From: Lasiodiplodia sp. COLG20
Taxonomy: Eukaryota; Ascomycota; Dothideomycetes; Botryosphaeriales; Botryosphaeriaceae
DNA: 64,000 bases
Assembly: GCA_009801085.1 (NCBI GenBank)
Contig: VNWV01000048.1
Coordinates: 1-64,000 of the forward strand
Direction of reading: 5' to 3'
The notes under the pieces were generated by a model that saw only the letters and a list, made by a program, of their open reading frames with translations, was not told the origin of the DNA and did not search any database. The position numbers and the translations under genes were made by a program. This document shows, piece after piece, positions 1,132 through 45,023 of the stretch. Each line of letters begins with the position of its first letter. Position 1 is the stretch's first letter.

Positions 1132-1440
1132 ATGGACTCGATTGAAGAAATCCAACAAAAAGTGGCCGGCATCATTGCCGGCGTATTGGAGGATAGCAGC
1201 TTCGTAGACGGCGATGCAGACCGCAGCATTTTATACCGCGGCGTTGACTCCCTTCGCGCTCTCGAGTTGAGCGCCTGCCTGCAAACCGAATTCGATTTGG
1301 GCCCGGATGAGATTCCAAATACCTTCGTCTTCGAAAATCCCACCGTCCGCCAGGCGGCCGAGGCCATCACCGCAGCGCTCCGCGCAACGGCATCGGCGTC
1401 GACCACCTTGGAGTTCGGCTGGCCCACGCCTTTGAGTAGC
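1132..1440 (+). other. PKS loading region: stand-alone N-terminal ACP
   Basis: Residues 1-100 form a carrier domain with the phosphopantetheine motif GVDSLRAL (Ser40). Nothing precedes it: no AT, acyl-CoA ligase, GNAT, KSQ or starter condensation domain. The starter unit must therefore be attached by a separate enzyme or by back-loading from one of the two internal ATs. In characterised modular systems an N-terminal ACP usually follows a loading enzyme domain, so a bare ACP implies loading in trans. The following linker carries an acidic DDEDD-type patch before KS1 begins at about residue 121. Confidence 0.85.
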
Positions 1441-4400
1441 GGCGACGACGAAGACGATAACCAGGCCGGCGATGGTTCAGATACCGCTCGCCTGGCCATT
1501 GTTGGAATCTCCTGCCGCCTCCCTGGCGGTGCGGTCTCCCCCGAGCGCTACTGGGATATCCTCAACGAAGGCGTCGACGGCGTGACCGAAATTCCCGCCC
1601 ACCGGCTCGATCTGGATCGTCTGGTCGCGGAAGCCAAGGTCTACGTCCGCAAGGGCGCCTTCGTCTCCGACGTGGAGCATTTCGACCACGAATTTTTCGG
1701 CATCCCCGCGAGCGAGGCGGAAGCCATGGATCCGCAGCAACGTCTGACGCTCCACGTCGTCTACGAAAGCTTGAGCCGCGCCGGCTGGAACAAGCAGTCC
1801 CTGTCCGGACTCGAAGCCGGCGTCTTCGTCGGCAACAGCGCCGTGGAGTGGTCTGACGTGCTGCCGGACGCGACCTTGCACGGTGTCTACGGCCGCTCTG
1901 GCACAGCCTCCGCGGTGCTGGCGAACCGCGTGTCCCACGTCCTCGGTCTCGGAGGCGTCTCGGTCACAGTCGACTCTGCGTGCTCCTCGTCGCTGGTCGC
2001 CGTGGATCTCGCGTGCCAGGCCGTCCGCGAGGGCCGGTGCCAGGTGGCCGTGGCAGCCGGCGTGCACCTCCACCTCTCAGAAAGGCGCTGGATCCAGCTC
2101 TGCAGCACCAAGATGCTCTCCCCGAGCGCGCGGTGCCGCGCCTTCGACGCTCAGGCTGACGGCATGGTGCGAGGAGAGGGCGTCGCCGCGGTCGCCATCA
2201 TGCCTCTCCACTTGGCCTTGGCCCAGGGCCGCCCGGTTCACGGCGTGATTCTGGGCTCTTGGGCCAACCACGCCGGAAAGGCTGCTAACATTACTACGCC
2301 CACGGGCCAGTCGCAACGCAGAGCCGTCAGCGCTGCTCTGCGGAGCGCCAAGGTGCGCCCCAGTCAGGTGTCCTACGTAGAAGCTCACGGGACCGGCACT
2401 GCCCTTGGGGACCCCATCGAACTGGGCGCACTTGCCAGTGTTTTTACTGCGGATTCTGCTGTTGGAAATGATGATGCTGAGTCTTCGAAAGAGGAGGAGC
2501 TGGTTATAGGCTCTGCAAAAGCAAGCATCGGCCATCTGGAGTCAGCTAGCGGCCTGGCCGGTCTAATCAAGGCTATTTTCGTACTTAAGCAGCAACAGGC
2601 TACACCACAGCTGCACCTTGGAGGCCTCAATACCGAGATTGAGCGGGCGACTCGAGGCTTCCGCTTTCGTATAGTGACTCCAGAATCCGAGAGTCGTAAT
2701 ATTGCTCCGAAGGGTCAGCTGACGGACGAGGGGAAGGAGACTTACGGCCTTGTTTCCAGCTTTGGATTCTCCGGCACCAATGCCTGCGTTGTGCTCGCTG
2801 CGCCCCCGGGACTGCCAACCTCAAATTCCCTTGACGCCCCTATCACCAGGTCGTTGGGACCAAGCGTTGGAAAACGGTTCTTCATGACGCCTTCTGCGAG
2901 GGAGCATCCGTTGCTACTCAGGTCGGAGTCCGAGCTGCTCGACTCGGACGAGAAGTTGATTGCCTCAACCATACGGCTCGGGTCTTACTCTGCAGTCTGG
3001 GACGACCAGCTGGCACATCGTGCCTTCAGGCCACGCAAGGGGTCCTTCCCATTTTCTGTCATCCTCGAACTGATCCTTGCAACTGCTTGCAGGGCGCTCA
3101 GTGCAGATAGATTCGGCGTCGCCATTGAGGATCTGGACATACACGACAAGGCTAGAGTTGCTTTTCTGACAGAAGAAGACGTCGTTAGATGTTTCATCGA
3201 TAGAGAGACACAGAATTGCGCGGTTTTCTTATCACCAGCGGCGAGCGTTGGGTCGTTTTCGGTGCTGGTACGGTGCCGGGTTCGCGCAACGGCACAAGAA
3301 AGCACCTCTGAGTCTCTTTCTCTGCGGGCATTCAACCAAATTCCGGCGCGCATAAAAGAGCAGTTGGCCAATTTAGAGAAAGTTCCGCTTCCAACATTAT
3401 ACGGCCGCCTAGACCGCCTTGGATATTCCGTTGGTGGCGAGGCTCGGAGGATCACACGGCTCTTCCAGTCAAATACTGATTCTTCTCCTCGCCGGAGAGT
3501 GGTCGCATTTGTACCGTTTAGCCATGCCGATGCGGGATTTCTTGTGCATCCAATGGAATGGTCGAGCATCGTACAAGCCGTGCTCTTTGCTGCGGCTGAC
3601 GATGAAGGAAAGTCGCTTTCCCTACCGTCGGTTGAGGAGAGCTTATCCAATCTGTCTGTTTCGGCCAGACCGGCTGGGCAAACCGGCCCACGTTGGGTTG
3701 TGGCGGAGGTATTGCCCTGCCCTGACGGCCGCATGATCGCGAATGTTACGGTAATCGACCACGACAGCGAAAGTGTTGTGCTGCAGGTAGACGGTCTTTC
3801 TCTCGTGCAGATGAGCCAGAGCCAGCTTAACCAGCGGTCCGACACTGGCGACGTTTGTGGGGCCGAAGTGTATGTGTCCGACTGGAAGCGCCTCAGGATT
3901 CCCGATTTCCAAGTAGCAACCAGCATCTTGGAAATGGGATCAGAGAGCATGTTAATGGTTCCTTCCATTCTGCAAAGCGCCAGGGAGGACGCCGTTCTCA
4001 CAGACGCACTCCATCAAGCCTTTCCAAACTTAATACAGACGCACAAGACAGTACCTTGGGAGCAGCTGGCACCAGGCGGTACTTCCCCGCTGCTCATTGT
4101 GCCACTACCACGTTTGCAGATGGATTCAGCAAGCACTGGCGATGCAAATCCAAGTACCTGGGCGGCACAAGCAATGGCTTTAGTCCACTTCTGCGGCGAG
4201 TTGGCGTCGCGGTCGACCGAGACATGGAAGCCAACCGTAGTCCTGGTGGGAAGCGGAATAATGAACACTCCCGACGACGACACCCAGACGTACGGCGCGC
4301 AGTCAGGCTACCTCGGGATATGCAGAACGGCCCGCTCCGAGTACGAGAGCATCGACGTCCGTTTGATCGACGTGCTGCAGGCATCAGGGGAGGAGGCGGG

Positions 4401-28400: not shown

Positions 28401-31400
28401 TGTCGGCGTCTACGTCGGCGCAATGAACTTCGATGCCGCGTTCAAGTCATCACAGCACGCTGGCGAGGCCCATGGCGCCGCAGCCGCCGCTCCATCACTC
28501 CTGTCGAGCCGTCTCTCTAACGTCTTCGGCCTCCAGGGACCTTCGCTCACCATAGATACAGCCTGCTCCTCAAGTCTTGTGGCGCTAGAAATGGCCGCCG
28601 AGGCATTACGCCAACGTAAGATCGACCGTGCTCTCGTAGCCAGCGTCAACGTCATCTCCTCCACCCGCACCTACGTAGCCGAATGCGCCGCCGGCATGCT
28701 CTCGCGCCGCGGTGTCTGCGCTCCTTTCGACAACCAGGCCGACGGTTTCGTGCGTGGCGAGGGTGCTGTGGCCATCGTGTTGCAACGCCTGGAAGATGCT
28801 ACCGGCGAGGTACACGCCGTGGTCAACGGTATAGCCACCAACCACAATGGCCGGACCGCCGCCAACCTCACCTCCCCCAGTCCATCCGCTCAGGAGTCCG
28901 TCATTCGCGCCGCCCTGGCTGACGCTGCTGTCGATCCCGCCCAGGTGGGATACGTCGAGTGCCATGGCACTGGCACCAAACTCGGCGACCCCATCGAAAT
29001 CAGCGCCCTTCAGAATGTCTTTGACGGCCCGTCTTCTTTCCCGCAGCAGCCGCTATTCATCGGCGCGGCCAAAGCCACAATTGGACATACGGAGAGCGCT
29101 GCCGGTCTGGTGGGTCTTTTGAAAGCTGTTCTGGTCCTGAAGCACGGCAAAGTTCCGCCGCTCTCGCACATAAGCCGCACCAACGAGCATCTTCAGCTGG
29201 AAGGCTCTCGTCTGGAGCTTCCCAAGTCATGGACGCAGCTGAATAGCCCTACCACCATCGCCGGCGTGTCCTCATTCGGTTTCTCGGGTGTCAATTGCCA
29301 TGCTGTCCTCCGCCGGCCTGATGCAGTTTCACTGCAGTTACCCAGGAGTCCATCTTTGCCGGAGCCCAAGCTGAACCGCGTCTGGTTCCCGTTGACATCA
29401 GTGCACTCCGCTGCCGGGGTTGAACTAACGCAAGATGTAACATCCAAACCTGGACAAGTGTACCCGGAAAATGGCTCATCCGTGCAGAATACTGCATTCT
29501 CAGCATCTTTCCGCCACGGTCTCTCCGCCACGTTCTTAGCGGAGAAATTCTGCGGTGCCAGCCGTCCGCAGCCCCTGCTTCTCAGCCTCGAGCTCATGTT
29601 CGCCGTCATGCAGCCGCAAGGGGTCAACAAGAGCGCTGTCGCCCTCCAATCTGGCGTTCTGAGAGCCCCTTACGACATCATTTCAGACTCCCAGAGCGGC
29701 CTTCGGGCTCAGACCATCACTGACGGCCTGCTTGGTGTGCAATGCGCGTTTGGCTCGCTGTCGGCCATCTTGTCAACAGCCAGCGTGGCTCCTGCCGCAG
29801 CAGCTGTTCCGAACCAGCTCGATGTGCAGCCCGGGGATGATGTGCTGGCCAACTCACAGCTCGGTTCCGCATCCTTCCCTCCGGGCGTCAGTGACGTGCA
29901 TCATGACCGGAGCGTAAACCGCGTTCGCTTCACGTTCACAAGGCCCAAGGATCAGCTCTACATCTGCCCGAGCCATGCAAACATCATCCAAGCCGCTTGT
30001 GACGTTGTCGTCTCTCTTCAGGGTTCGGAGCATCGCAACCCCCTGGTTGTCGGTTTCGACTCACTCACAGCCGTACCCGGTTCGTCAAAATTCACGGTCG
30101 ATATCGCCGTCCGTTCTTCCGGTGATGAAGAGCTATGCTTAGATATCCTGGCTATTGCCGAAGAGAGCAAGAGTGGCCTGCATGTTCGTGGTCTTCGTCT
30201 CGCCCTGGCATCCACGAATCCTGCCGCAATCAGTCTTACAAAGCTGGACCTCCGCCCCGTCTTGGACCTCTATGAGCTTTCTCATTCCCCAAGCGGTCGT
30301 GTTTGGCGCGTCGATGGATCCCAACATCGCTCTAGCGGTTTCGGCAGCGTCAACTCCATTTCCATCGATCAGCTGCAGACCGACCGCATGGCCGCAGACG
30401 ACGTCGCAGTCTTCCCTGCCACGGACCTTTCCACCACTTCAGAAGTTCTTGAGAAGTGGGCAACCAAGGCGAGCAACCGCCACCTCTGGATCCTCTGCAG
30501 CAGAGAAAACCCCCTGATGCCCGCGCTCCGGGCTCTTATTCAGACGTTCCGCCTGGAATACCCACGCTGCAGCATCGGCATCGTCACAGGCGAAGGCCAT
30601 GTTGAAGATTTGGTGCCTCGAGTGCCTATGGAACTCGGCCCAGAAGTCCACATCGCGCACGGTGGCCGCCTTCACCTCCCGTGCCTGCTTCCTGCTGCTC
30701 CCACGTCAAGATTCCAGCAGCAGGGACGCACAACTCCCAACTTGATGCGCGGTACCTTCGTCATCACCGGCGGCACTGGAGGTCTCGGTCTCGCCACCGC
30801 TGAAGCACTCCTCGAGGCAGGCGCGGCGCACGTGGCGCTGCTCTCCCGCTCCGGAAGGGCGACCAAGGGTTCGAACGAGCGTCTTTCGAGACTGCTGTTC
30901 AAAGAGTCGAGCAGGCTGTCGGTCCACCAAGCAGATGTGACCGATGAACGACAAGTGACCGACGTGGTGCGCCTACTCCAGTCGCGCTGGGGCTCCATTA
31001 CCGGCGTCTTCCACGCCGCCGGCCAGCTTTCCGGGGAAGGGGAGGGGGTGACCACCAAGGGATTCAACGGCGCCTCTTTCGAGCATCACCGCGCCGTCAA
31101 AGTCGACGGCTTGAGAACTCTACTAACAGCTCTACGCAACACCAGCGTCGAGGTCGTCGTCGGCTTCTCGTCAACGTCGGCACTGCTCGGGCTGCGGCAT
31201 CAAGCTGAGTACGCAGCGGCAAACGCGGCCATGGACGCTGTGCTTCTGGATGGGGAGCAACAGCAGAAACGCTACCAATCAGTCACGCGCTACGTCTCTC
31301 TCCAAATCGATGCGGTGGCATCTGTGGGCTTCGCGGCTCGGACGCTGTCTAGCGGCGCTGAACAAGAAGGGATGATGCCCCTGCCGAACTTCAAACGGGC

Positions 31401-33708
31401 TATCATACAGGTCGCCCAGAGCGCATCAGGCGTCGTCAGTCTCATGGATAGCCGTCGTGCTGCGGTGTGGCTATCTCGTCAGGGGGTCAAAAGGACGGCC
31501 CAGCCGTCGCCGAACGGCCCGTTCCCGGACACCAAAGGAAAAGAAGCAGCTGGCGCCAAAGTAACAGAGAGCCCCGTCAATGGGTCTGGAGCGGTGCCCA
31601 TGCTCATTCGCTCTGCATTCGAGGAGGTGACGGGGCACAGTCTCGAGAGCGATTCCACGCCGTTCTTTGATGCCGGCCTTGACTCGCTAACTTCCGTCTC
31701 TTTCCGCCACGTGCTTGAAGACCGCTTGGGTTGCACTCTACCCACGTCAATCGCGTTCGACTACCCAAACCTTAACAAATTGGTGTCCTTCCTGCATAAG
31801 GAGACAGCTGTCGTAACCCAGTCTCTTCAAGAAGCACCCAAGTCAATCAACAGGACCACTGCTGTTACTGCTGCTGCAACTTCTGCTCACGATGACGGCG
31901 ATATTGTCGTCACTGGCATGGACTGCGTCTTCCCAGGCGCCGACGGAATCGAAGCCTTCTGGGATGTTCTCATGTCGGGCAAAGACATGGTCGCCCCTAT
32001 CAGCCCGGACCGACTCGACCTCGAGGGGTACAACAAGCATCTGCATCAGACCGAAGGCGAAGACGAGGCGGCGGTGACGATCAGAGAAGCAGCGATGCTG
32101 TCGTACGACCAAGTCTTCAGCTTCGACCACGCCTTCTTCGGCATGTCTCGGCGCGAGAGCGAAGCCACGGACCCGGCCCAGCGGCTCGTCCTGCGCACCT
32201 GCTGGCAAGCCCTCCACCGCGCAGGCTTCACCCGCGACGAGCTCGAAGGCAGACGGGTCGGCGTCTTCGTAGGTGCCGGCCCCAGCGAGTGGAGCAAGGC
32301 GCTGGGCTTCCGCAACGCGCTGACGGGCGCGGGTTCGGCGGCCTCGCTGCTGGCGAACCGCGTGTCGTACTGCCTCGGCCTGCGCGGGCCCAGCCTCGTC
32401 GTCGACACGGCCTGCTCGTCCAGCCTGGTCGCGCTGCACCTGGCGCGCGCCGCCATCCGCCGCGGCGAGTGCGAGGCGGCGGTTGTCTGCGGCGTGCAGG
32501 TGCACCTGCACCCGTCGAGCTTCGAGCAGGTCTCGCGCTCCAAGATGGTCTCGCCGTCGGACAACCGCTCCAAGCCCTTCGACGCCGCCGCCGACGGATA
32601 CGGCCGCGGCGAGGGCTGCGGCGCCGTCGTGCTCGTCAGGGCGCGCGATGCTGTTGCTGCTGCTGTGCCGCCCCTGGCGGTGCTGAAGGGCTCCGCGGTC
32701 AATTCGGACGGCCGCTCGGCGAGCCTGACGGCTCCGAGCGGGCCCTCGCAGGTCGATGTCATCCGCGAGGCGCTGGCGGACGCGTGCCTCGAGCCTGGCG
32801 ATGTCGCGTACGTCGAGACGCACGGCACGGGCACGAGTCTGGGCGACCCGATCGAGTTCAACGCGCTCAAGAGCGTCTTCGGGTCTTCATCGTCGTCGTC
32901 ATCGTCTTCGTCGCAGAGGCGACTGCAGCCGCTTGTTCTCGGCGCGCTCAAGGGCCAGATCGGCCACCTCGAGGGCGCAGCCGGCATCTCCAGCTTCATC
33001 AAGGCCGTCCTGGCGCTCAACCACGCCGTCGCGCCGCCGAACGTCAATTTCCGCCGCCTTAATCCTGCTGTTGTCGGTGGAGGTGGGTTCGACTTCGTCC
33101 TGCCTACCAGGCCCCAGCCCCTTGATACCGGAGATGATGGGGCGGTCCTCGCAGCAGGCATCAGCTCGTTCGGCTTCGGCGGCACGAACGCCCACGTCGT
33201 CCTGACAGCAGCCCCTGCGGCTGAGAAAACAAGCTTCAGCAGCACCGCCGACGACGGACCGTCGCCCGCTCTGCGCCGCCTCCGCGCGCCGCACCGCTTC
33301 GCTCCGACCCTCGTCGAGCCGCCTGCCCGCTCGCTGCATCCCCGTCGCGGCCGCCGCACCCATGTCACCGGTGCGGCTTCTTCCCCTGTCACGGTCTCGT
33401 CGCCACCGCCGGCCACAACCGCCGTTCCGCCTCGTCTCTCCTCTCCTTCGTCGCTTTCGCAGGGAAGTCGCGGCCGCGGTGGTGGTACCTTCCAGATGCG
33501 GTTCCAGAGCAGTGGTGTTAGGAGTCCGAGAGCCAGTACGGCTACCGCCGTTGCTCCTGTCCTTTCGGCGAGTACATCCACCACGATGGCGCGGAGTAGT
33601 GTTCAAGAAGGCGGTACGGGGGTCGCTGGTGGTAGCAGCAGCTCCATCACCACGACCACAGCTGGACATCGGCAGTTCCGGTTCAAGTTCAGCGAGAGGA
33701 TGGGTTGA
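1132..33708 (+). CDS. giant intronless multimodular type I polyketide synthase
   Basis: A single 10,858-codon frame encodes six ketosynthase-led units. Domain order read from motifs: ACP; KS-DH*-KR-ACP; KS-AT-DH-ER-MT-KR-ACPx4; KS-DH-ER-MT-KR-ACPx2; KS-AT-DH-MT-KR-ACP; KS-DH*-KR-ACP; KS (* = degenerate). All six KS keep Cys (residues 284, 1912, 4767, 7018, 9145, 10428), the HGTGT/HGTAT His and the GHxE His. Both ATs have GHSxGE and HAFHS, the malonyl-type signature. The enzyme should assemble a reduced, C-methylated polyketide chain. Known fungal highly reducing PKSs are one iterative module of about 2,200-2,600 aa, so this is four to five times larger and architecturally bacterial-like. It has no visible intron although its neighbours are spliced, which fits acquisition from bacteria or retention of an intronless form; neither is proven. 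The start at 1132 directly precedes the first ACP. There is no thioesterase or reductase release domain; the adjacent hydrolase may serve. Confidence 0.93.
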   Translation: MDSIEEIQQKVAGIIAGVLEDSSFVDGDADRSILYRGVDSLRALELSACLQTEFDLGPDEIPNTFVFENPTVRQAAEAITAALRATASASTTLEFGWPTPLSSGDDEDDNQAGDGSDTARLAIVGISCRLPGGAVSPERYWDILNEGVDGVTEIPAHRLDLDRLVAEAKVYVRKGAFVSDVEHFDHEFFGIPASEAEAMDPQQRLTLHVVYESLSRAGWNKQSLSGLEAGVFVGNSAVEWSDVLPDATLHGVYGRSGTASAVLANRVSHVLGLGGVSVTVDSACSSSLVAVDLACQAVREGRCQVAVAAGVHLHLSERRWIQLCSTKMLSPSARCRAFDAQADGMVRGEGVAAVAIMPLHLALAQGRPVHGVILGSWANHAGKAANITTPTGQSQRRAVSAALRSAKVRPSQVSYVEAHGTGTALGDPIELGALASVFTADSAVGNDDAESSKEEELVIGSAKASIGHLESASGLAGLIKAIFVLKQQQATPQLHLGGLNTEIERATRGFRFRIVTPESESRNIAPKGQLTDEGKETYGLVSSFGFSGTNACVVLAAPPGLPTSNSLDAPITRSLGPSVGKRFFMTPSAREHPLLLRSESELLDSDEKLIASTIRLGSYSAVWDDQLAHRAFRPRKGSFPFSVILELILATACRALSADRFGVAIEDLDIHDKARVAFLTEEDVVRCFIDRETQNCAVFLSPAASVGSFSVLVRCRVRATAQESTSESLSLRAFNQIPARIKEQLANLEKVPLPTLYGRLDRLGYSVGGEARRITRLFQSNTDSSPRRRVVAFVPFSHADAGFLVHPMEWSSIVQAVLFAAADDEGKSLSLPSVEESLSNLSVSARPAGQTGPRWVVAEVLPCPDGRMIANVTVIDHDSESVVLQVDGLSLVQMSQSQLNQRSDTGDVCGAEVYVSDWKRLRIPDFQVATSILEMGSESMLMVPSILQSAREDAVLTDALHQAFPNLIQTHKTVPWEQLAPGGTSPLLIVPLPRLQMDSASTGDANPSTWAAQAMALVHFCGELASRSTETWKPTVVLVGSGIMNTPDDDTQTYGAQSGYLGICRTARSEYESIDVRLIDVLQASGEEAGCRSLAAEDAAVLSAVFGWIQDHPDLSRLLGPEIAIRRGEVYLPRLVPLDPSHTRTRSTVGTDVSAAVSFDVASPQEGRAWRGMTQLVQHAAKQQPEVQCLVLLEPSAALVTGERDGLPAGARITYASSCPATIARQALQLCFRPTHDKLCLLPNEDPTAPSLFDYAHFDVILVSASSADLSKAASCLLPGGMILVTLEPGCEDAGAEAVAAELSRLGLSVSRTDGRDRILAVVRPDASGTTVTPVASSSGIISDGDRGCFVVTGGTGGLGLLSAQHLIRQGARHVVLLSRSGRPAPGCEKLLQEVLSSKGAEVHVAEADISDASALSHLHETLRQRQWLPVRGIIHAAGVLADATLACLDAGSFDVVNKPKVVGTRRLLEHLCGDAHNGDIEFFVGFSSVATLLGLPAQASYAAANAQLDAIVAQMRAVHGIPAATVQLGGVSDVGMSARVADHVHAWGVGQIASGDFGAMLQKVIQMAKLPRHRTLVGANLDWKTLHSTRRPQQNRVLSTFMPAPHKLTPHKRVQQESGNAASNTAALKPAMSLEEVEQIVNQTLEDVAGLQVAKEESLYECGLDSLSAVQFRNVLAQRFEGVELAPTLVFDYPTVDHLTQYIHQQLQQRAAAARPPPPPQPTPSAPATTSNAPTSNVGDMDGAVAVIGVEARMPGSANSFDEFWANLCAGVDGIGDVPYARFDADDYLDDNQLAGGKTAYVLRAGFVDGVEWFDNERFGITPMEAKVMDPSQRVMLETAHRAFAAAGYDRDALKGSKTGVFVGSLSPDWRQVLTEHTAYSGTGSALSIIANRVSYVLGLVGPSMAIDTACSSSLVAMHLALQSIRAGQCEMALVGGVQTILNVAPFINGCKARMLSPDAHCKAFDASADGYVKAEGCGALVIKDLAAARRDGDRILALVRGSAVNQDGRSANLTTPYGPSQRALMEQALQGAGVSPDDVCYIETHGTGTPLGDPIEVAAIREAFTSETRAAQRRPLYLGAVKSAIGHLEGAAGIAALVKAVGVMSRGQLPPNLHYRSLNPYINLKDASGWIRIPTEVVDLANADSERRPLVCGVSGFGFGGTNAHVVLQSYDGGDQRKAETRTETQPSVQPIDKVAFLFPGQGCQFVGMGQKLFGADRAFADAVERCDRIMQEQGLLEGKSLIRDVLWPSIPQDPPLVEDARFTQPAIFAIEYGLAEALAARGIRPAAVLGHSFGEFAAAVTAGIMTLQDAAKLVAVRARVAADMVSTGAMFLIHAPAETVQKAIDTFHQSNGSKDQVAIAATNGPRMTNIAGTEEACEAVCKAVRAPKVRLAIPHAFHSPFMEPLREHMSRDLQGVRLAAPSLRFFPTVAGHTDADTSKPASSPAREAEYWLDQVVRGVDFMAGMRRLAEAGFDTFVEIGPRPTLIKMGQRCVTSDAQGPQRHWVASLHDEGPEAESPLDHLEQLAKMLSEKKGSGQKAKVQGGARRFWRPLPHRIVKQVVPTSEKGVFTFERKLGRQLGKLLEEHRVNGIAVVPGALYIDAALALFAGARSIRAPEQGPSPVLTNANVSSIELHDLVFERPLQLPTAMDLGGLSAKQGIVVEGRLALSGTGGTVRIASRAIENAATATPHFSCTVSKLASRSAASAAIDIAALTKSLLHVSADAVYEASAGFGVEYGTRFRCIEELWKGEGVAVSRLRAPRTDNGFLLDVGMLDGALQTAAFTVEREQAYMPFSVESVTVKGSIANAGQEFYSIARLRGREQNMVEMDITLVDARGIPVVELRSMKSRAAPRQDSILKKSVYEVEWVPLPNGVERTHHFQGDMLLMGTQKGSIDETWIRKLASSLGMKPKFVDATKVSGQDFSRAGLVVVAPAAPPSENDMIPATETTVEQGLTSLQAALRTLAAVESADEVAPVCLITHNAVPAGSGKVNPAHATLWGLARSARVEYTDLTVATIDADDAAVSGNLHGLICIMTQHRSKWSQGEAEFAVRGDNVLVPRMVESFAEGCRLPQQLAWRQASQAGGLSSLTWIPLAEPRAPGPGSVLLQVKAVGLNFKDVLTATGVDVDAVDVGTDCAGIVRAVGQGVTGISVGDDVFGIAPGCFKDLVIARADRLTSTPARLTAYEAATLPSAYLTARLALLDAPSIKPGDRVLVHAASGAVGQALVRLAHQHGCTVYATAGSEAKREYLLKQLGVAAAFPSRDAAAFQRELRTHLAREGGTIDVVVNSLADAYIPNSVSFLRHGGRFVEIGRKSIWTAEQMRAHRPDVEYRIVELDKLHSQPGNVAQHLAEVASLVDQGSLEPIVSEVFPRIKVVEAFRRMQRALHIGKVVVSIEDMPDTRASADVLCPARTQPESVERAISDISSCAAADLGVPVDEIERGWRALSLYCFQQLRHAAQRVGPSGVVERQRRLYQRYCRGDPTRQFSPNEEAPLGLDGIADAYPFLVPQVEMLRQVDGHHEAVFRGTTDPLTLLFSGGASKRIAQDLYEKGIFARFCNQVAADVAGYLAGSLMPGATMKMLEVGAGTGGTTSRVLPKLGDAVQSYHFTDLSTSFLRHAEKRFAAQYRYVNYHLFDVEKDPVPQGVRSQSFDVVLACNVLHATKDLTRTLTHVRQILKHGGYLVLSEVTAPSYFADATFGMTSGWWLFADLELRPDYPLLTAQRWRSFLLNTIGFEHVWISEQGGPLHNQSVIVARTPSASAMSPRISRPLSTASTNDRNGVVVLAGGLGGLGVLTARLLLERGWKRFAFLSRSGEVPADATNEWQHFIAGGPQHRIHRCDVADRSALERVLDEVRQQQGPIVGVVQAAGVLDSATLPNQDMARFRALMGPKVAGSWNLHVATQRDPVRFFALFSSMASVLGSAGQANHAACNSFMDALAAHRRAQGLPAVSIQFSSVSAVGEAARRRADLRHTIGYLSIPKLLARNGIEALVDSDAVAVALSPIDWAKMLAKYRVPPNLFQAFFGRAVQANASGAAEKPVASGKPAVRQQDRKAKSDSTNKKAAATSRRTQKKTPKENKATAVKRSALPPANKSNADHESEARTLVVSAFREVLGYEPPRDDMGWKDAGVDSLLSIELRNAICARLDDLGVSKKVPVTFVFDYPTVRQAVGFLAAAIASSAGATSVEQAIVEKRSSSSKSTRKSNKQRKMASKTPNANKNHEAPKPAVVESEDFLSLVLESWQETISTPIRPEQAFVDCGLDSLSSVELLFALQTRLEDRIQLPENLVMQQPTPQDVASWFLQRLGSNGNARSATTEASPSFGEGTDHMSLIIEAWRSTVGTDLGADDDFVEAGLDSLSSVELLYALQQAVGESVEVPEGIFLSQKTPRALAAWLDDRLPRSNMEHGTATAVSEHEDLSDEEESSLSSDSLSSESDEMPEESDQTESTEESDDDDNDEHLDNVEKWEDAERIVHSAIEDVLGYSIDSRAPFTDSGVDSLSSLEIRNALQAKVPSVIKVPATAVFDYPSVQKLAGFLSQRMAELERANRPTSKPSRSAKLQTKKPVAKAKFPSRKAPKQRVEKASREKMEETEDPIVIVGMASRFPGQTDDRVEGWFEWLLDGKDAFVEIPHRRFDIDEVYHPGGESRAGKSYVRDAAFVHGAEMFDHAHFGIVEAEAAKMDPQQRLLLETSFQALHCSGYTKQSLDGLDIGIFVGCCSNDWSKMPEARGSAFSGTGAAASILSNRISYALNLCAPSMTIDTACSSALVALDAAASALKLGKCRAAVVSAVNLMLSYGTFVTECEASMLSPSGKCRAFDSRADGFARGEGCGSVVVKKLSQARADGDEILAVLAATAINQDGRSAGLTAPNGPSQEAVIRSAIEAAGLRPEQLIHLESHGTATKLGDGIEWTALENVFGDRSSREPPLYVGSVKANVGHLEGAAGMAGLIKSVMILRSGKIPPQANFETLNPLFETGHALAVPTKLTSLDGIDVSKFACGISSFGFGGTNAHAIVRLPTASEVPHSSLGTHRLLRTPWPFDGRKYIPWRPSDSPFVTSKVLRDGDRWAVYRVSLGERLRKELLEQHRVRGTTIVPAAAIIEMTRAALEAHLVEESASLELVELILAKAILVQDVTPANPVFLQCATLANGTDSGKSWHIETECQGEVILHATVAFGRFDADTTESTLDVEDASMLHSTLIKPSDFYRRAADRGLEYGPLFQALTRIAVKRDGSSAFVKIGSSQYETSTSPSSTFILSRNDYFVPPHLCDAAFQACSLLHREDAANQTFLPFQIGQVRWHTTRDQVDRRPKYAICQRHGGGPDLLVASVAIYDQRGELLLSVGNFVAQAIQRSKETLDVIENAAGTAQKETDQHMSGSSSGVSESRSTAVIPERMFRESLQLVSTSRSVSSGTGFTRFALIRSSSGRSTTRELSRLPIPQVDVHPTHNLHQRLSSLSGIEGLLFAPPARLNDPDGDGSLEILDVVKALDGMSVPIPLTIINTADVSAPPGDGRGALEVPENNWTLSGLIRACRTELPDLKIFLWHIDPALAQRDGFFTSPPALHAASLLPLEQELFTDANGQYTPRLQPIAPMEKEVVGLECQVGADAEPDFGHLRIVPLRRQPGDGPGPDEVEVQVRAVGLNFRDVLNAMGLNLGVPGPLGADCAGVVSRVGSNVQKWRIGDEVLGIARGCLRSYATTDHRRLIAKPADMTFEQAASVPSVYATVYHSFVDVARLRAGQTVLIHAAAGGVGLFAIQLAKHLGANIIATVGSPEKERLVRSYGVQLVSSSRDVRKFETDMGQWRARPDVVLNCLTGDFIPVSLGFLAPSGRFIELGKREIWTEEQVSSVRPDVQFVVVAIDKMLAEDPQAHADLLLRVERELLAGWSQPLPIQKFAFTDVAKAFASMRRGQHVGKVVLSLEHASLSNAAGGSVLSTVPNLGRLLRTGMDDAMVEFFSTEFDRTELLAGLEAVDQIARTYLQQCMASAMPSQVTPHLRALYDLYRHQRPSYGAKGAADVKRMYRSVGARVDFLEHVRQEHLAMLTGDTDPVSVLFSDPALTKRLYDESPLAALFNKVISGALISVAAETGRLKAIEIGAGTGGTTRSVCDVLGSLCRSFCFTDISTSFFNRAQQEFAPSIPGFHTALLDIERDPEYQGFILGSYDLILAANVLHATADLSVTLANIHALLKPGGILVLSELTDSSVWADATFGFTKGWWLSTDDRRSSGCGPLISLARWNDAFRRVNLEPVTSSDETIAAQTIMVARRPFHPVNHFRSTIPPAVGQRARGVPSTVDEGVYVITGGTGGLGLLSAHILILEGARRIALLSRSGTVPGEAEAELWALLQQSRCQISIHRCDVSDEVQLRRIFDSFGVPVVGIIHAAGHLSDASIGNQSTATFSTVMRTKASGLLNLHRLSLQHPVKMFVVFSSASAFFGSAGQTNHAAANSFMDGLVRWRRRVGLPASSIMWGAVSQVGDAARRGADRRKKMLYDPLSLVDAAEVLSTVLFGDLDVVLAAPIRPASISGDYRGNKRIFGSLLPSKNVNTANGTQETIFRTSEPAPRLQPVLGSQQKTAPSTSGSKHADYDRVLSTIRSLATKYIGRQPADDELLVGAGLDSLSAIDLRNSIQAKLLPSGTRLPASTVFDHPSPADLARLVCSKLGSGSVPSASQPAPSPSTFYRPESTAPAPTPAVTVPSVAIDDVLLVVRRVASRLLSRIPQDDEPLVAAGLDSLTAIEFRNILQKEFGITQRLKPTLVFDHPTSREIADFLLPILSSGNLARTSTTVAAPSASFQSSNRATMQAVSSQVSEQPARPVMPSTLEPTFVPRDPPRASEQVTVAPVNKALEIAGIGCRLPGRASDPGKFWKNLIDKVDCIVPVPHDRFDMDDFYDPVPGTEGKSYVDQAAFIDDIDLFDRHAFNMSPSQVSQMDPQQRLALQVALEAFMDAGYEDRTKLRGSNTGVFAGVCSNDWHKVKKDPSFLGGGFDVAGGANSMIANRISFEFGLKGPSVAIDSACSSSLQAVDMARRAILSGVCDRALVLGVNLILSPDTFIGECQATMLSPSCRSKAFDDEADGFARGEGCAAIVIEKPGHGPKSDAYAELIGSASNHDGRSASLLAPNGPAQTAVINAALAEAGIAGYEVDFLETHGTGTKVGDPLEFNAFQEALAPGRSTRRPLHIGALKTNFGHLEGAAGIAGLVKAALVLQHAQVPANLHFRKLNSHIDAEGFPVVFPGQTVALRATNGPLVGSVSSWGFGGSNVHAVLRQATHPRKPQEEDIRHETEQSIVTTDIAPCPGLVAMFTGQGSQSVNMVSSLYRSDSTFRSCIDECAAIADDLLDRPLLSVLYPPAGDEARAAQLIEDTSYSQVCLFAVELGLFRMLQREGFSPAVVLGHSLGEFVAAHVAGCLSLRDAMRLVATRGKLLGALPRNVGSMVALVASAEEVAATLRRLQLSQCSIAAINSPRMTVVSGAKHEVDEVSRSIGCVARPLKVSHAFHSPLMRPALRGFEEALANVKIRAPQPGGIQLVSCVTGRLAGAELENPAHWLSHIVDPVRFLDAVQEAHRLGGRCFVEIGPRAVLAKLVRQCISAPLTITATQDPPKDDHGAWNEAIAKVRGVVNAQLPPAVAIAQPSTAPTTRPAISKRAERFPYRKTQHPFLKNRKDHSDGRVTFTVAIRHGLASLLKQHVVHGRVVVPGALHMELAASAARQVHSSSAGYIVLEDVTFSAPCVLSAEDMQGDDSGKILPSLFCTVCPSDRTISIAFGQGSPETLSPNVEARYVVSDNNSGSRTGSVNAGVNNCTSPNDEHQAAAEVYKHFELKGLQYGPHFRTLQSISGSRSQAHARHSLALIGHGMFAHPCLLDGILQTSAGLFLDTLASTPARMPFNVERIEFLQPLPSCVNVVATRTDNATDDRFLRIDLAVYSENDDELLMMVSGLQSRPAPTSGAALAPLKEAGTPLFYQQAYAHEEVRREAQISAQSVQQVSYAVVGDRFNPIKRRLIDTLGYSTQVMELETLTPHQATSHRMNTGSVHTVVVDCRAFDESRPRLSGVDTDWEEDLATSTLAYYASLCNSEHLPDCLVHITSGALNPGSAVRTVKGAALVGMAKAFKVEQYHLPITIMALDVQDENMTAPSLIVDEIVAAVRSDSSNGGFIQVGLRGSTRSVPVTVMAPVSCDGRSGFEDGRSSLRLQTTAEVTRLLASSTTTFAEENRAMVDRFSRADTELQDICSQLMAHAAWQTQRWEVTPHLLRTWQRYRTSPPREAFSALLDRLARLRTEYPDATGNKSLLGPQLVLLESTAKQLNEVFTGRVDPLTLLFADQNQDAAGELYKSTFLARHFNKLVVAAVIDAIQTSALPADYTVQVLEIGAGTGGTASFVLPALRDLGVRVRYCFTDLSSSLLARARKNFSRYPFVEYRVLDVERPCEPQGFAPETFDIVLATNVLHATADLDAVMANVRELMLPGGRLIVSELTRVMPFADCTFGLTTGWNAHEDRHRHDGPLLSAASWFDVLRNARLQPLAHSPQESIFANQAILVAARDAAVLPSTRQRLDIRRSDATYLITGGQGGLGLLTAKTMVEQGARNIILVSRSGKPAAGSKDDWDTLNALCARSSVRLEVFGYDVSDEGNVTALFSRIRSLGLPPIRGVVHSAGILQDGTFTAQTAASYRAVLKTKAAAARLLQAQLPHLDFFVSYSSVASLLGAPGQSNHTVANTLLDCAAEWQWAAAHSGSRPSFASLAVQWGAVSGVGDAARRGAADADKRSSSVHAAIPKDTAEALIRKLFTVAFQRPVVTFVPFLWHNLWKADCKFASERFAAFKPARYLPPAGVTPEGTATRQGPTLDVNADKPVESRPGPSAQPATATPALTQILDETVEDVLGRSVESSESLVDAGVDSLGAIDFRNKLQKKIPGLRAPATLLFEHPTKAALLEFLAKHAPAAAAKPTPLPQQQVPVKPTPEGSEITAVVSTGSPQGELAVVGLACRLPQADSPQEFWDLLSKHPSTAFGRVPADRCDMASVLDPSGKSRAAAYTDTGAFVRDADMFDHSAFGLPAFEAAAMDPQQRVLLEVSLRAFASAGLDREALTGSRVGVYVGAMNFDAAFKSSQHAGEAHGAAAAAPSLLSSRLSNVFGLQGPSLTIDTACSSSLVALEMAAEALRQRKIDRALVASVNVISSTRTYVAECAAGMLSRRGVCAPFDNQADGFVRGEGAVAIVLQRLEDATGEVHAVVNGIATNHNGRTAANLTSPSPSAQESVIRAALADAAVDPAQVGYVECHGTGTKLGDPIEISALQNVFDGPSSFPQQPLFIGAAKATIGHTESAAGLVGLLKAVLVLKHGKVPPLSHISRTNEHLQLEGSRLELPKSWTQLNSPTTIAGVSSFGFSGVNCHAVLRRPDAVSLQLPRSPSLPEPKLNRVWFPLTSVHSAAGVELTQDVTSKPGQVYPENGSSVQNTAFSASFRHGLSATFLAEKFCGASRPQPLLLSLELMFAVMQPQGVNKSAVALQSGVLRAPYDIISDSQSGLRAQTITDGLLGVQCAFGSLSAILSTASVAPAAAAVPNQLDVQPGDDVLANSQLGSASFPPGVSDVHHDRSVNRVRFTFTRPKDQLYICPSHANIIQAACDVVVSLQGSEHRNPLVVGFDSLTAVPGSSKFTVDIAVRSSGDEELCLDILAIAEESKSGLHVRGLRLALASTNPAAISLTKLDLRPVLDLYELSHSPSGRVWRVDGSQHRSSGFGSVNSISIDQLQTDRMAADDVAVFPATDLSTTSEVLEKWATKASNRHLWILCSRENPLMPALRALIQTFRLEYPRCSIGIVTGEGHVEDLVPRVPMELGPEVHIAHGGRLHLPCLLPAAPTSRFQQQGRTTPNLMRGTFVITGGTGGLGLATAEALLEAGAAHVALLSRSGRATKGSNERLSRLLFKESSRLSVHQADVTDERQVTDVVRLLQSRWGSITGVFHAAGQLSGEGEGVTTKGFNGASFEHHRAVKVDGLRTLLTALRNTSVEVVVGFSSTSALLGLRHQAEYAAANAAMDAVLLDGEQQQKRYQSVTRYVSLQIDAVASVGFAARTLSSGAEQEGMMPLPNFKRAIIQVAQSASGVVSLMDSRRAAVWLSRQGVKRTAQPSPNGPFPDTKGKEAAGAKVTESPVNGSGAVPMLIRSAFEEVTGHSLESDSTPFFDAGLDSLTSVSFRHVLEDRLGCTLPTSIAFDYPNLNKLVSFLHKETAVVTQSLQEAPKSINRTTAVTAAATSAHDDGDIVVTGMDCVFPGADGIEAFWDVLMSGKDMVAPISPDRLDLEGYNKHLHQTEGEDEAAVTIREAAMLSYDQVFSFDHAFFGMSRRESEATDPAQRLVLRTCWQALHRAGFTRDELEGRRVGVFVGAGPSEWSKALGFRNALTGAGSAASLLANRVSYCLGLRGPSLVVDTACSSSLVALHLARAAIRRGECEAAVVCGVQVHLHPSSFEQVSRSKMVSPSDNRSKPFDAAADGYGRGEGCGAVVLVRARDAVAAAVPPLAVLKGSAVNSDGRSASLTAPSGPSQVDVIREALADACLEPGDVAYVETHGTGTSLGDPIEFNALKSVFGSSSSSSSSSSQRRLQPLVLGALKGQIGHLEGAAGISSFIKAVLALNHAVAPPNVNFRRLNPAVVGGGGFDFVLPTRPQPLDTGDDGAVLAAGISSFGFGGTNAHVVLTAAPAAEKTSFSSTADDGPSPALRRLRAPHRFAPTLVEPPARSLHPRRGRRTHVTGAASSPVTVSSPPPATTAVPPRLSSPSSLSQGSRGRGGGTFQMRFQSSGVRSPRASTATAVAPVLSASTSTTMARSSVQEGGTGVAGGSSSSITTTTAGHRQFRFKFSERMG
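1491..6280 (+). other. PKS module 1: KS-DH(degenerate)-pseudoMT?-KR-ACP, no AT
   Basis: KS1 spans residues ~121-555 (Cys284 in DSACSSS, His419 in HGTGT). It is followed within ~75 residues by a dehydratase-like fold (~590-913), leaving no room for an AT. The DH has a His (629) in the first motif, but the surrounding HxxxGxxxxP pattern is lost and the second-motif Asp is replaced (HPMEWSS, Ser811), so it is probably inactive. A KR structural half follows, then a segment ending FDVILVSASSADL...LLPGGMILVTLEP that looks like the C-terminal half of a decayed C-methyltransferase lacking the SAM-binding GAGTGG. KR1 (~1348-1560) is intact, with TGGTGGLG and Tyr1502 in SYAAAN. ACP1 has Ser1667, then a proline-rich linker. 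Predicted output: a beta-hydroxy extension. Confidence 0.85.
6361..14890 (+). other. PKS module 2: KS-AT-DH-psiKR-ER-MT-KR-ACP-ACP-ACP-ACP
   Basis: KS2 (~1744-2170, Cys1912) leads a full AT (~2196-2510, Ser2295 in GHSFGE; HAFHS predicts malonyl-CoA). DH2 is intact (His2589 in HRVNGIAVVPGA, Asp2778 in MLDGALQ). ER2 (~3078-3400) has the nucleotide motif HAASGAVG. A C-methyltransferase (EVGAGTGG at ~3586; NVLHAT) lies after the ER and before KR2, not in the DH-MT-ER order of fungal highly reducing PKSs. KR2 has AGGLGGLG, but the catalytic Tyr position is His3932 (ANHAACN). Four carrier domains follow, with Ser4136, Ser4267, Ser4361 and Ser4502. The middle two resemble each other most and lack the FDYPT helix-IV motif. 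Lys-rich and Asp/Glu-rich linkers separate them. Predicted output: a fully reduced, alpha-methylated extension. Confidence 0.88.
14911..21460 (+). other. PKS module 3: KS-DH-ER-MT-KR-ACP-ACP, no AT
   Basis: KS3 (~4594-5022) has Cys4767 in DTACSSA, a variant HGTAT motif and VGHLEG. Only ~65 residues separate its end from the catalytic His of DH3 (His5089 in HRVRGTTIVPAA; Asp5272), so the AT is absent. ER3 (~5600-5925) carries HAAAGGVG at ~5747. The methyltransferase (EIGAGTGG at ~6097) again follows the ER. KR3 (~6300-6520) has TGGTGGLG with His6445 in place of Tyr (TNHAAAN). Two ACPs follow, with Ser6620 and Ser6734. The domain order matches module 2 apart from the missing AT and the smaller ACP array, suggesting module duplication followed by AT loss. 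Predicted output: a second fully reduced, alpha-methylated extension, with malonyl supplied by another AT. Confidence 0.87.
21661..27965 (+). other. PKS module 4: KS-AT-DH-psiKR-MT-KR-ACP, no ER
   Basis: KS4 (~6847-7269, Cys7018) is followed by the second and last AT (~7296-7600; Ser7397 in GHSLGE; HAFHS, malonyl-type). DH4 is intact (His7689 in HVVHGRVVVPGA; Asp7865 in HPCLLDGILQ). No ER is present. The structural KR half runs directly into a methyltransferase (EIGAGTGG at ~8369, NVLHAT) and KR4 (ITGGQGGLG, with His8712 at the Tyr position, SNHTVAN). One ACP follows (Ser8898). If colinear, this step adds an alpha-methyl alpha,beta-unsaturated unit, provided the KR works with His in place of Tyr. 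Confidence 0.87.
28060..31830 (+). other. PKS module 5: KS-DH(degenerate)-KR-ACP, no AT
   Basis: KS5 (~8977-9397, Cys9145 in DTACSSS, HGTGT, IGHTES) is followed by a dehydratase remnant (~9414-9700). It has lost both catalytic positions: no His in the first motif and Asn at the second-motif Asp (CPSHANIIQA). A short linker leads to KR5 (ITGGTGGLG, with canonical Tyr10027 in EYAAAN) and ACP5 (Ser10185). No AT, ER or MT is present. The architecture repeats module 1: both lack an AT, carry a dead DH and have a Tyr-type KR. Predicted output: a beta-hydroxy unit. Confidence 0.86.
31900..33708 (+). other. PKS terminal KS6 plus low-complexity C-terminal tail
   Basis: KS6 (~10257-10695) has all catalytic residues (Cys10428 in DTACSSS, HGTGT, IGHLEG) and a 10-serine run at 10585-10594. 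After the KS end (GGTNAHVVL) comes a piece, LRRLRAPHRFAP...LHP, resembling the entry into a DH in the AT-less modules. An Arg/Ser/Thr/Pro-rich tail of about 150 residues with no recognisable fold then runs to the stop. There is no AT, ACP or release domain. KS6 may pass the chain to a nucleophile or partner protein, be a truncated sixth module, or act as a gatekeeping KS. Confidence 0.8.
32884..32913 (+). repeat. serine-codon microsatellite inside KS6
   Basis: Ten consecutive serine codons (tcn/tct) encode a polyserine loop between the HGTGT block and the IGHLEG block of KS6, where KS domains have a variable surface loop. The frame is preserved and the catalytic blocks on both sides are intact, so it is probably tolerated. 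Confidence 0.8.
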
Positions 33709-37270: not shown

Positions 37271-37420
37271 CCCACTGACGCCAGCGAGTATCACAGTCGC
37301 CAGCAACCATCTGGCCAGATAGAGTATTTATGGACCAGTCAGTCAGATAAGGAGACGGGCAAGAAACTGCACGCAAGCCCTGAAATTGTCCTCGTTCACC
37401 ATTGAGCTCTGAAAAGTCGA

Positions 37421-38729
37421 ATGGAGATGGCTTCACCTACGACCAAGTCTCGCCCCGTCGAATCGCAGCTACGGGGTATTAGAAAGAAGCGGATGGCTTG
37501 TGATGTCTGCCACGGGTCGAAAGTCCGCTGCAGTGGTGGCACTCCTTGCAACACCTGCAGCAGGATCAGTACCGATTGCGTCTACAGCTTTTCCAGTGTA
37601 CTCGGAAGGCCGAAGAGTCGCAGGACAAAGAAGACGGGAGTGGCACGTGAAGAAAAGGCGGCGGCGAAGACAACAACAACGGATCAAGCGAAAAATGCCA
37701 CCACGGATGCCAACGACCAAGAGCACGCACATGTTCCGGAAATGGACATTTCCGGCTTCTACCCTGGTGAGTAATCAACCATCCACTCAATTTTCACTCG
37801 CTAACCTCGCAACAGCCGAACACAATTACTACGATGACATTCCGCTCTGGGATTCCTACTCTTGTCTGGATTCTGACCAGACACAACTTCTTTGCAGCAA
37901 TGTCGAACATGTTCAAATCAGGCCGGAAGACGCTGTGACGAGTATTTCCTCAGAGATTCCTCCAGCGAGTCTCCCCGAGTCGAATGATGCGGAGTATATC
38001 GCGGGTCTGCAAACACTTTCTAGAAGCCTTTCCCCCGAAAAGAACGCCGAAATACCGCAGCTCATGTGTGATTGCTTGAAGCGTTGCGCAGTAGTGCTGT
38101 CCGGGTTGAAGGCGCTGGAGATGGATGTACAGTTCCAGATCGACGCTGCGCTGCTACACATCCGCAAAGCCACAGCCACTTGGAAGCAAGTGTTGCAGTG
38201 CAGTTGCTGCACGAGAGGAAACCCTGAGGATGCCGTGTACATGGTCATCAGCGGTGTACGAGCGGCTTTACGCTACCTCGTGGCTGTCTTCGGAAACGAG
38301 GTTGAGAAAGCCACTGATACATCATCTGGCAGCCTTTATTCCGATCCGCCCCAGAGCCTGCCCACTCCACAGGAAATGTCACCTCAAGAAGACTATCTTG
38401 CGTCCTCTAAGCAAGTGAGCAGCGCGATCGGAAGGTCGAACTTGGGAGGCTACGACATGGATGAAGAAGAGCAGGAACTTGTCGTAAAATTCATTGCGCT
38501 ACGGCTGGTTCGCGAAATGACGGACGTGCTGAAAATGTTGGAGGGGCGAGTTAACAAACAACAAACTCCATTGTTTTGGCCTGATACGGCACTAACTCAA
38601 CAACCGGCCGCCTGGAGTGACGATTTATTTCATCTCCAACCCTTACTGCAAGGGGTTAAGGAGATAGCCAAATCATTACAAGAAAGCCTGGGCAACTCAA
38701 GTACAGCCGAGCTTCAGCGGTATATATGA
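37421..38729 (+). CDS. AflR-like Zn(II)2Cys6 transcription factor
   Basis: Two exons, 37421-37766 and 37816-38729, joined across a 49-nt GT-AG intron with CTAAC just before the acceptor; 419 aa. The zinc cluster uses Cys27, 30, 37, 43, 46 and 53 (spacing 2-6-5-2-6), preceded by a basic RKKR segment and followed by a basic linker GRPKSRRTKK. The C-terminal part (from about residue 210) resembles the AflR regulatory domain, with a Cys-rich CLKRC, a helical DAALLHIRKATATW and CSCCTRGN. AflR-family factors are nuclear activators of clustered secondary-metabolite genes. Its position next to the PKS and hydrolase, on the same strand, makes it the likely pathway regulator. Two dyad repeats in its own promoter may be binding sites. 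It could also regulate unlinked genes. Confidence 0.88.
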
Positions 38730-44968: not shown

Positions 44969-45017
44969 GGAAAGCAATTTGGTAATCTGGAGGTAATACG
45001 GCCAGCCAAGAGGGAGA

Positions 45018-45023
45018 AATAAA
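45018..45023 (+). terminator. AATAAA polyadenylation signal after the SDR gene
   Basis: AATAAA occurs 50 nt downstream of the SDR stop, in the convergent 310-bp gap before the dehydratase stop. The position fits a fungal poly(A) signal for the + strand transcript. Confidence 0.4.

What the first reader, a model, noticed from the sequence alone, without database searches (positions are those of the whole stretch)
1132..33708. A 10,858-aa intronless multimodular PKS in a fungal genome
The frame encodes six KS-led units in one polypeptide, with domain order reminiscent of bacterial assembly lines. Established knowledge: characterised fungal type I PKSs are almost always one iterative module. The gene has no visible intron while every well-modelled neighbour downstream of 37 kb has them. 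Either a modular synthase was acquired horizontally or a fungal module family expanded in place; both would be a notable departure.
Basis: partly seen in the sequence, partly recalled or inferred. Interest (0 to 1): 0.95.

Follow-up and report, generated by a model that had tools for sequence, protein, structure and literature searches.

The report
Fungal assembly-line polyketide synthase in Lasiodiplodia
A plant-associated fungus, apparently a Lasiodiplodia, carries a huge intact enzyme with six linked building stations, of a kind usually seen in bacteria and some algae; it probably works with a second giant enzyme to build one complex molecule, and seems to have grown by copying its own modules.

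Summary
1132-33708 is one uninterrupted 10,858-codon frame with 6 KS, 2 AT, 3 recognisable DH, 2 ER, 3 MT, 5 KR and 10 ACP. It is not an assembly chimera: L. theobromae has the colinear gene at 92-93% identity, split into two gene models; relatives at 53% exist. A second PKS here (5,876-codon frame; 2 KS, terminal TE) is of the same family. All three L. theobromae models are listed with a contig of 371,828 bp, so probably one contig. PKS1 ends in a bare KS; PKS2 starts with MT-ACP and no KS. I read them as one two-protein assembly line with a split module (inferred). All eight KS form one clade (100/97), as do all six MTs (98/98), supporting growth by module duplication; BLAST scores and the KR tree support it less. 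The source of the founding module is unresolved: grouping with this genome's own fungal PKSs is not rejected (AU p 0.351, 0.236). Two oddities: MT sits directly before KR, unlike 17 comparators, and only 3 of 8 KS have an AT. Product, non-iterative use and expression are untested.

The parts
1132..33708 (+). PKS1, one open frame of 10,858 codons, six KS-led modules
1159..1380 (+). ACP0, N-terminal carrier (presumed loading)
1480..2823 (+). KS1 (module 1), no AT follows
2824..5166 (+). module 1 stretch in the position of DH and structural KR; no Pfam match at E<=1, read as degenerate
   Evidence: negative; position; inference
5167..5817 (+). KR1, Tyr type
6040..6255 (+). ACP1
6355..7668 (+). 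KS2 (module 2)
7714..8691 (+). AT2, GHSFG, HAFH (malonyl-type signature, recalled)
8779..9702 (+). DH2
10369..11325 (+). ER2
11503..12441 (+). MT2, between ER and KR
12475..13107 (+). KR2, His in place of the usual Tyr
13444..14763 (+). four tandem ACPs (ACP2a-d)
14914..16212 (+). KS3 (module 3), no AT follows
16270..17193 (+). DH3
17944..18897 (+). ER3
19075..19968 (+). MT3
20020..20637 (+). KR3, His type
20899..21459 (+). two tandem ACPs (ACP3a-b)
21661..22959 (+). KS4 (module 4)
23023..23946 (+). AT4, GHSLG, HAFH
24079..24978 (+). DH4
25834..26787 (+). MT4
26806..27477 (+). KR4, His type
27733..27948 (+). ACP4
28051..29337 (+). KS5 (module 5), no AT follows
29338..30744 (+). module 5 stretch in the position of DH and structural KR, read as degenerate
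   Evidence: no Pfam match at E<=1; model of low confidence
30745..31404 (+). KR5, Tyr type
31591..31806 (+). ACP5
31891..33231 (+). KS6, bare terminal KS (read as the KS of a split module 6)
   Evidence: split reading is inference
33232..33705 (+). 158-aa low-complexity tail; its end is kept in L. theobromae (P0122), and parts are recognisable by eye in relatives P0123/P0124
35169..36347 (+). FSH1-type serine hydrolase gene (392 aa), possible hydrolase of the cluster
   Evidence: PF03959, E 1.4e-22
37413..38729 (+). frame with a CxxC cluster like a Zn2Cys6 regulator (read by eye; no Pfam match)

Best explanation
PKS1 is an intact fungal modular type I PKS. With the related PKS2 (another contig of the same genome; 2 KS, terminal TE) it most likely forms a two-protein, 8-KS assembly line. 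Shown: the frame, the domains, conserved orthologues, one clade for all KS and one for all MT, domains conserved more than the rest. Inferred: a starter sits on the N-terminal ACP0; each KS extends the chain once; AT2, AT4 and the PKS2 AT load malonyl also onto the AT-less modules 1, 3, 5, 6 and 8; methyl branches come from six SAM methyltransferases; the chain passes from ACP5 to KS6 at the PKS1 C-terminus, whose module is completed by the KS-less MT-ACP start of PKS2; PKS2 adds two units and its TE releases a methyl-branched, largely reduced chain or lactone. The array arose by repeated duplication of ancestral module parts, not by import of a ready-made bacterial assembly line.
For: Frame and domains. 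PKS2. In the two proteins one KS lacks a module (KS6) and one module lacks a KS (PKS2 start; apart from the lone ACP0). KS clade 100/97, MT clade 98/98. Constraint: 95.9% identity to L. theobromae inside domains (6,909 aa) against 85.6% outside (2,688 aa). Bare KS6 kept in P0122, P0123 and P0124. Composition native. In the PF00698 scan (best candidates only) no match on C43 outside PKS1 and none near PKS2 besides its own.
Against: In this assembly PKS1 lies on C43 (78.6 kb) and PKS2 on C1 (8.46 Mb); physical linkage rests on contig lengths in L. theobromae only. The first 549 aa of PKS2 gave no significant match to DH or structural KR (hhalign probability 0.7%; Pfam only a chance-level unrelated hit, E 0.26), though the corresponding stretches of modules 1 and 5 gave none either. 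No starter and no loading enzyme was identified. For 5 of 8 KSs (KS2 by one bit, KS3, KS4, KS6, PKS2 KSb) the best non-orthologous BLAST hit lies outside the family. In the KR tree the Tyr-type KRs (modules 1, 5) and His-type KRs do not join, which fits mosaic origin as well. P0238, a 'Physeter catodon' record, falls inside the KS clade, and excluding it costs 17.6 log units (AU p 0.112). Several KS branches are long. A common clade does not exclude a transferred founding module.
Confidence: 0.6

Rival explanations
1. PKS1 and PKS2 are paralogues serving two pathways. KS6 is a relic, and PKS1 is unloaded by the FSH1 hydrolase encoded 1.5 kb downstream; the KS-less start of PKS2 is a methylating loading module.
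For: FSH1-type hydrolase next to PKS1; the two genes are on different contigs here; no sequence proof of a DH/KR stub at the PKS2 N-terminus. That such hydrolases unload fungal PKSs (LovG) is recalled.
Confidence: 0.2
2. A bacterial multimodular PKS cluster was acquired as a whole by horizontal transfer.
For: Outside the family the best KS hits are bacterial or unnamed metagenome proteins and score above this genome's own iterative-type KSs, and in 5 of 8 KSs above all non-orthologous family members; the MT tree places the family next to bacterial MTs that directly precede an ACP (88/65, then 87/87, weak); His-type KRs occur in bacterial MT modules.
Against: The six iterative-type KSs of this fungus tested also hit such proteins best apart from their own close kin, so this is no diagnostic; the eight KSs form one clade rather than scattering among bacteria; none of 15 non-fungal comparators has the MT directly before KR; composition native; union with the own HR-type KSs or MTs is not rejected.
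Confidence: 0.1
3. The founding module, or a smaller multimodular ancestor, came from another eukaryote (alga or protist) and expanded in the fungus.
For: The only non-family row inside the KS clade is P0238, a tandem KS-AT-KR-ACP protein filed under sperm whale, which I take for a contaminant of unknown, perhaps protist, origin (guess); chlorophyte algae have MDa-size PKSs with AT in trans that grew by module duplication (PMC4661987, passages).
Confidence: 0.07
4. Assembly or frame artefact, or contamination.
For: The contig is short, begins in a dispersed repeat, and its last 147 bp are identical to an internal stretch of C1.
Against: Colinear orthologue across module borders in L. theobromae; no N and no long repeats in the gene; FSH1, GH18 and LysM frames on the same contig.
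Confidence: 0.03

Closest known systems
L. theobromae gene models P0002 + P0122 (annotated 'PpsC' and 'PpsA') and P0236 ('PikA1, modules 1 and 2')
   Same: The same genes: 93% and 92% identity to PKS1, 87% to the 3,332-aa PKS2 piece used as query
   Different: There PKS1 is split into two models, both named after bacterial enzymes
Bacterial modular cis-AT type I PKSs with C-methyltransferases
   Same: Repeated KS-led modules; His-type KR in many MT modules (9 of 15 non-family KRs of MT modules; 3 Tyr, 3 untyped); TE at the end of the last protein (recalled)
   Different: 5 of 8 KS without AT; MT directly before KR (7-20 aa, 16 of 16, orthologues included) against 95-292 aa from MT to ER/KR in 15 comparators
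Bacterial trans-AT PKSs
   Same: AT-less modules, tandem ACPs, modules split between proteins (that these are trans-AT traits is recalled); AT-less module 3 (residues 4594-6133) scores best in the PDB against 7zma, 'Putative polyketide synthase' (that it is a trans-AT bimodule is recalled)
   Different: AT domains are present in 3 modules; no discrete AT found near either gene
Chlorophyte multimodular PKSs (PMC4661987, passages only)
   Same: Eukaryotic MDa-size PKSs, noniterative, module duplication, ATs displaced in trans
Fungal iterative HR-PKS and PKS-NRPS type genes (own genome C67, C15, C11)
   Same: SAM methyltransferase in the module
   Different: One KS per frame; MT 72-129 aa after DH (4 frames) and 483-495 aa before KR (2 frames); KS in another clade in the best tree

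Membership tests
Modular type I PKS (assembly line) | Several KS-led modules in one polypeptide | tested here: met
   6 KS in PKS1, 2 in PKS2
Modular type I PKS (assembly line) | Catalytic residues kept in the condensing domains | tested here: met
   Cys-His-His in the six PKS1 KSs and in PKS2 KSa by alignment; PKS2 KSb read by eye
Modular type I PKS (assembly line) | Each module used once, in order | not testable with these tools
   Needs product or biochemistry
Modular type I PKS (assembly line) | Terminal release domain | tested here: met
   PF00975 at the PKS2 end; none among the Pfam matches of PKS1
cis-AT PKS | An AT in every extension module | tested here: not met
   AT after KS2, KS4 and PKS2 KSa only, 3 of 8
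trans-AT PKS | AT-less modules served by a discrete AT | tested here: inconclusive
   AT-less modules yes, but three integrated ATs exist and no discrete AT was found near either gene
Fungal highly reducing iterative PKS | One KS-led module per protein, MT between DH and structural KR/ER | tested here: not met
Fungal highly reducing iterative PKS | KS in the fungal HR clade | tested here: inconclusive
   Separate in the best tree, union with three own HR-type KSs not rejected (AU p 0.351)
Split module between PKS1 and PKS2 | KS-only C-terminus of one protein and KS-less module start of the other | tested here: met
Split module between PKS1 and PKS2 | DH/KR remnants at the PKS2 N-terminus | tested here: inconclusive
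   no significant match; modules 1 and 5 likewise undetected
Split module between PKS1 and PKS2 | Same gene cluster | tested here: inconclusive
   Equal contig length 371,828 in L. theobromae; different contigs here

The most novel reading that the evidence does not exclude
Fungi evolved their own collinear, multi-protein polyketide assembly line: ancestral modules were copied within the lineage leading to Lasiodiplodia until eight KSs stood in two proteins, most copies lost their AT and share three ATs, the C-methyltransferase was moved to lie directly before the ketoreductase, and one module was split over two proteins. Assembly-line logic would then have arisen in fungi independently of bacteria.
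Probability: 0.35. Interest if true: 0.95.

Novelty: new variant of a known kind. Interest (0 to 1): 0.8.

Why it matters
Fungal PKSs are taught as iterative one-module enzymes (established knowledge). An intact 6-KS polypeptide plus a 2-KS partner, conserved between this genome and L. theobromae with domains more conserved than the rest, means that collinear programming may exist in a fungal genus, and makes two open questions testable: how assembly lines arise by module duplication, and how AT-less and AT-bearing modules share acyltransferases. It also shows that such genes sit in databases as split models with bacterial names.

Tried and rejected
Assembly collapse or chimera: rejected. Contig C43 filling a short run of N upstream of PKS2 so as to make the two genes direct neighbours: looked at with the C43 right end and not supported (the end carries a Yip1-like fragment instead). 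Donor search: best KS identity outside the family 45-52% per KS, no donor. Placement of the founding module: unresolved. hhalign of the PKS2 N-terminus against DH-KR stretches: no significant match. AlphaFold of the module 5 DH/KR stretch: mean pLDDT 45.8, hotdog-like strands with a helix around residues 184-290 but too poor to use; no fold search was run. Domain models were built from PKS1/PKS2 themselves, so divergent comparator domains can be missed. In the KR count, 173 of 1,179 non-family KRs without a directly preceding MT and 2 of 6 with one did not fit the motif and were not typed; in the family one MT-linked KR and one MT-free KR were not typed, and one family KR counted as MT-free with His is a KR split in two hits (P0123).

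Literature: nine searches (open-licence library only; listings cut at 20 of 59, 20 of 49, 10 of 27) listed no title or abstract start about a multi-KS non-iterative type I PKS of fungi. Passages found by term were read in PMC8582187 (its classification contains a class 'multi-modular: multiple KS'; 12 of 27 places shown), PMC8336260, PMC10219381, PMC6739476 (PKS cluster counts only) and PMC4661987 (12 of 46 places shown); the rest were seen in listings only. Most subscription journals and all preprints were not covered. A report of a bacterial-type hybrid NPS/PKS in ascomycetes (Lawrence et al. 2011) is recalled, not read.

Full report
What is there. The window is bases 1-64000 of contig C43 (78,636 bp) of a 43.5-Mb, 88-contig genome. 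The frame 1132-33708 on the plus strand has 10,858 codons with no internal stop. Pfam and family-specific HMMs give this order: ACP | KS1-(degenerate stretch)-KR-ACP | KS2-AT-DH-ER-MT-KR-ACPx4 | KS3-DH-ER-MT-KR-ACPx2 | KS4-AT-DH-MT-KR-ACP | KS5-(degenerate stretch)-KR-ACP | KS6-tail. Totals: 6 KS, 2 AT, 3 DH, 2 ER, 3 MT, 5 KR, 10 ACP. The stretches after KS1 and KS5 give no Pfam match even at E 1. The next gene, 35169-36347, is an FSH1-type serine hydrolase.

It is real. A search of 5.8 billion proteins (445 candidates scored) returned, as best hit, a 5,641-aa L. theobromae protein that aligns colinearly with residues 1015-6666 at 93%, and a second search (1,584 candidates scored) returned a 3,981-aa protein aligned with 6888-10858 at 92%. 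Both are listed with one contig of 371,828 bp; residues 1-1014 and about 6667-6887 are not covered by either model. Two unnamed proteins (P0123, P0124) align with 7362-10835 and 7358-10749 at about 53% and keep the bare KS6. Identity to L. theobromae is 95.9% inside domains (6,909 aa) and 85.6% outside (2,688 aa), as expected for a functional enzyme. The host is therefore a Lasiodiplodia or close kin (inference); over the PKS2 query piece it is 87% identical to L. theobromae, 88% (over 54% of the query) to L. hormozganensis and 95% to an unnamed record.

A second gene of the same kind. The KS scan of the own genome found a 5,876-codon frame on C1, 1419181-1436808, minus strand. Its order is MT-(KR-sized stretch without match)-ACP | KS-AT-DH-MT-KR-ACP | KS-DH-ER-MT-KR-ACP-TE. 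Orthologues exist in L. theobromae (P0236), L. hormozganensis (P0235) and an unnamed source (P0234). In the window's genome the two genes lie on different contigs, and the neighbourhood of C43 is unresolved: it begins in a dispersed repeat and its last 147 bp repeat an internal part of C1.

How it most likely works. Between the two proteins there is one KS without a module (the end of PKS1) and, apart from the lone ACP0, one module without a KS (the start of PKS2). I infer that they make one split module, and that the pair forms an assembly line of eight condensations ending at the PKS2 TE. Reductive domains predict beta-hydroxy at modules 1 and 5, full reduction at 2, 3 and 8, alkenes at 4 and 7, and an unreduced methylated position at the split module 6; up to six alpha-methyl groups come from MTs. 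The three ATs carry GHSxG and HAFH or RPFH, which I take as malonyl type (recalled). Five of eight KSs have no AT, and the AT scan found no separate AT on C43 or beside PKS2, so the integrated ATs probably serve neighbouring modules. The loader of ACP0 is unknown. A P450-like frame (read by eye) lies beside PKS2 (L022:2186-3733).

Two unusual features. First, in all 16 MT-KR pairs of the family (orthologues included) the MT ends 7-20 aa before the KR, after ER (47-60 aa) or 276-304 aa after DH; in 15 non-fungal comparators whose MT is followed by ER or KR the gap is 95-292 aa, with the MT 118-146 aa after DH where a DH was found (10), and in own fungal frames MT follows DH by 72-129 aa (4) and precedes KR by 483-495 aa (2). 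In PKS2 a structural-KR match (SpnB_Rossmann, E 1.4e-4, below its curated cut-off) lies before the MT, so the MT seems to lie between structural and catalytic KR. Second, the five KRs of MT modules have His where KRs carry Tyr, while KR1 and KR5, in MT-free modules, keep Tyr. Non-family KRs without a directly preceding MT: 1,006 Tyr, 0 His, 173 untyped of 1,179; with one: 3 His, 1 Tyr, 2 untyped of 6; in the rows, where an MT within two domains upstream counts, 9 His, 3 Tyr and 3 untyped of 15. As His-type KRs also stand in modules with DH and ER, here and in bacteria, I assume that they are active (inference).

Origin. In a 60-row tree (IQ-TREE, mixture model) the eight KSs and two relatives form one clade, 100/97, together with P0238, a tandem PKS filed under sperm whale and probably a contaminant. 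The six MTs and two relatives form a clade of 98/98. This supports growth by duplication of modules. Two results fit it less well: in 5 of 8 KSs the best non-orthologous BLAST hit lies outside the family, for KS2 by one bit; and the KRs fall into an MT-linked His group (94, below the star threshold) and a Tyr group (95*) that do not join, so parts of modules may have different histories. The trees do not tell the source of the first module: forcing the KSs together with three own HR-type KSs costs 7.3 log units (AU p 0.351), the MTs with five own ones 5.8 (p 0.236); excluding P0238 costs 17.6 (p 0.112). GC of PKS1 (0.600) and PKS2 (0.618) lies within the range of nine other PKS frames of this genome (0.523-0.668), which speaks against recent transfer only. 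No algal or protist reference set was available.

Known or new. The genes are in public databases, split and named after bacterial enzymes. My searches of an open-licence library found no account of a fungal multi-KS assembly line, though a classification tool foresees the class (PMC8582187, passages). Chlorophyte algae have comparable giants with ATs in trans that grew by module duplication (PMC4661987, passages). I rate it a new variant of a known kind: assembly-line PKS logic in a fungus, with mixed AT supply, displaced MT and a probable split module.

Noticed in passing
window 1-96: The contig begins in a short dispersed repeat; a 900-bp query from here has 40 further matches listed in the genome, all within bases 1-96 of the query.
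   Followed up: partly
L024:4490-4636 (C43:78490-78636): The last 147 bp of the contig are identical to C1:4896004-4896150, part of a Yip1-like gene there, and diverge sharply before it: assembly branch or partial duplication.
   Followed up: partly
window 55434-60077: LysM-domain frames (minus) next to GH18 frames, the first with a chitin-binding domain (plus).
   Followed up: no
window 43033-46052: Ketopantoate reductase (ApbA_C) frame and a mandelate-racemase/enolase-like frame near the PKS; membership in the cluster unclear.
   Followed up: no
L022:2186-3733: P450-like frame beside PKS2, read by eye from the heme-binding motif.
   Followed up: no
P0238: A protein filed under sperm whale with tandem near-identical KS-AT-KR-ACP modules is the only outside row in the KS clade; likely a contaminant in that record.
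   Followed up: partly
bacterial MT modules (P0226, L053, L057, L058, L062, L063, L066): His instead of the catalytic Tyr in KRs of modules with a C-methyltransferase is seen in 9 of 15 non-family KRs, across several bacterial phyla.
   Followed up: partly
own genome C12:171636-172385 (frame 1788 aa): A KS-AT-KR-ACP frame resembling a partially reducing PKS such as mellein synthase (guess from architecture).
   Followed up: no
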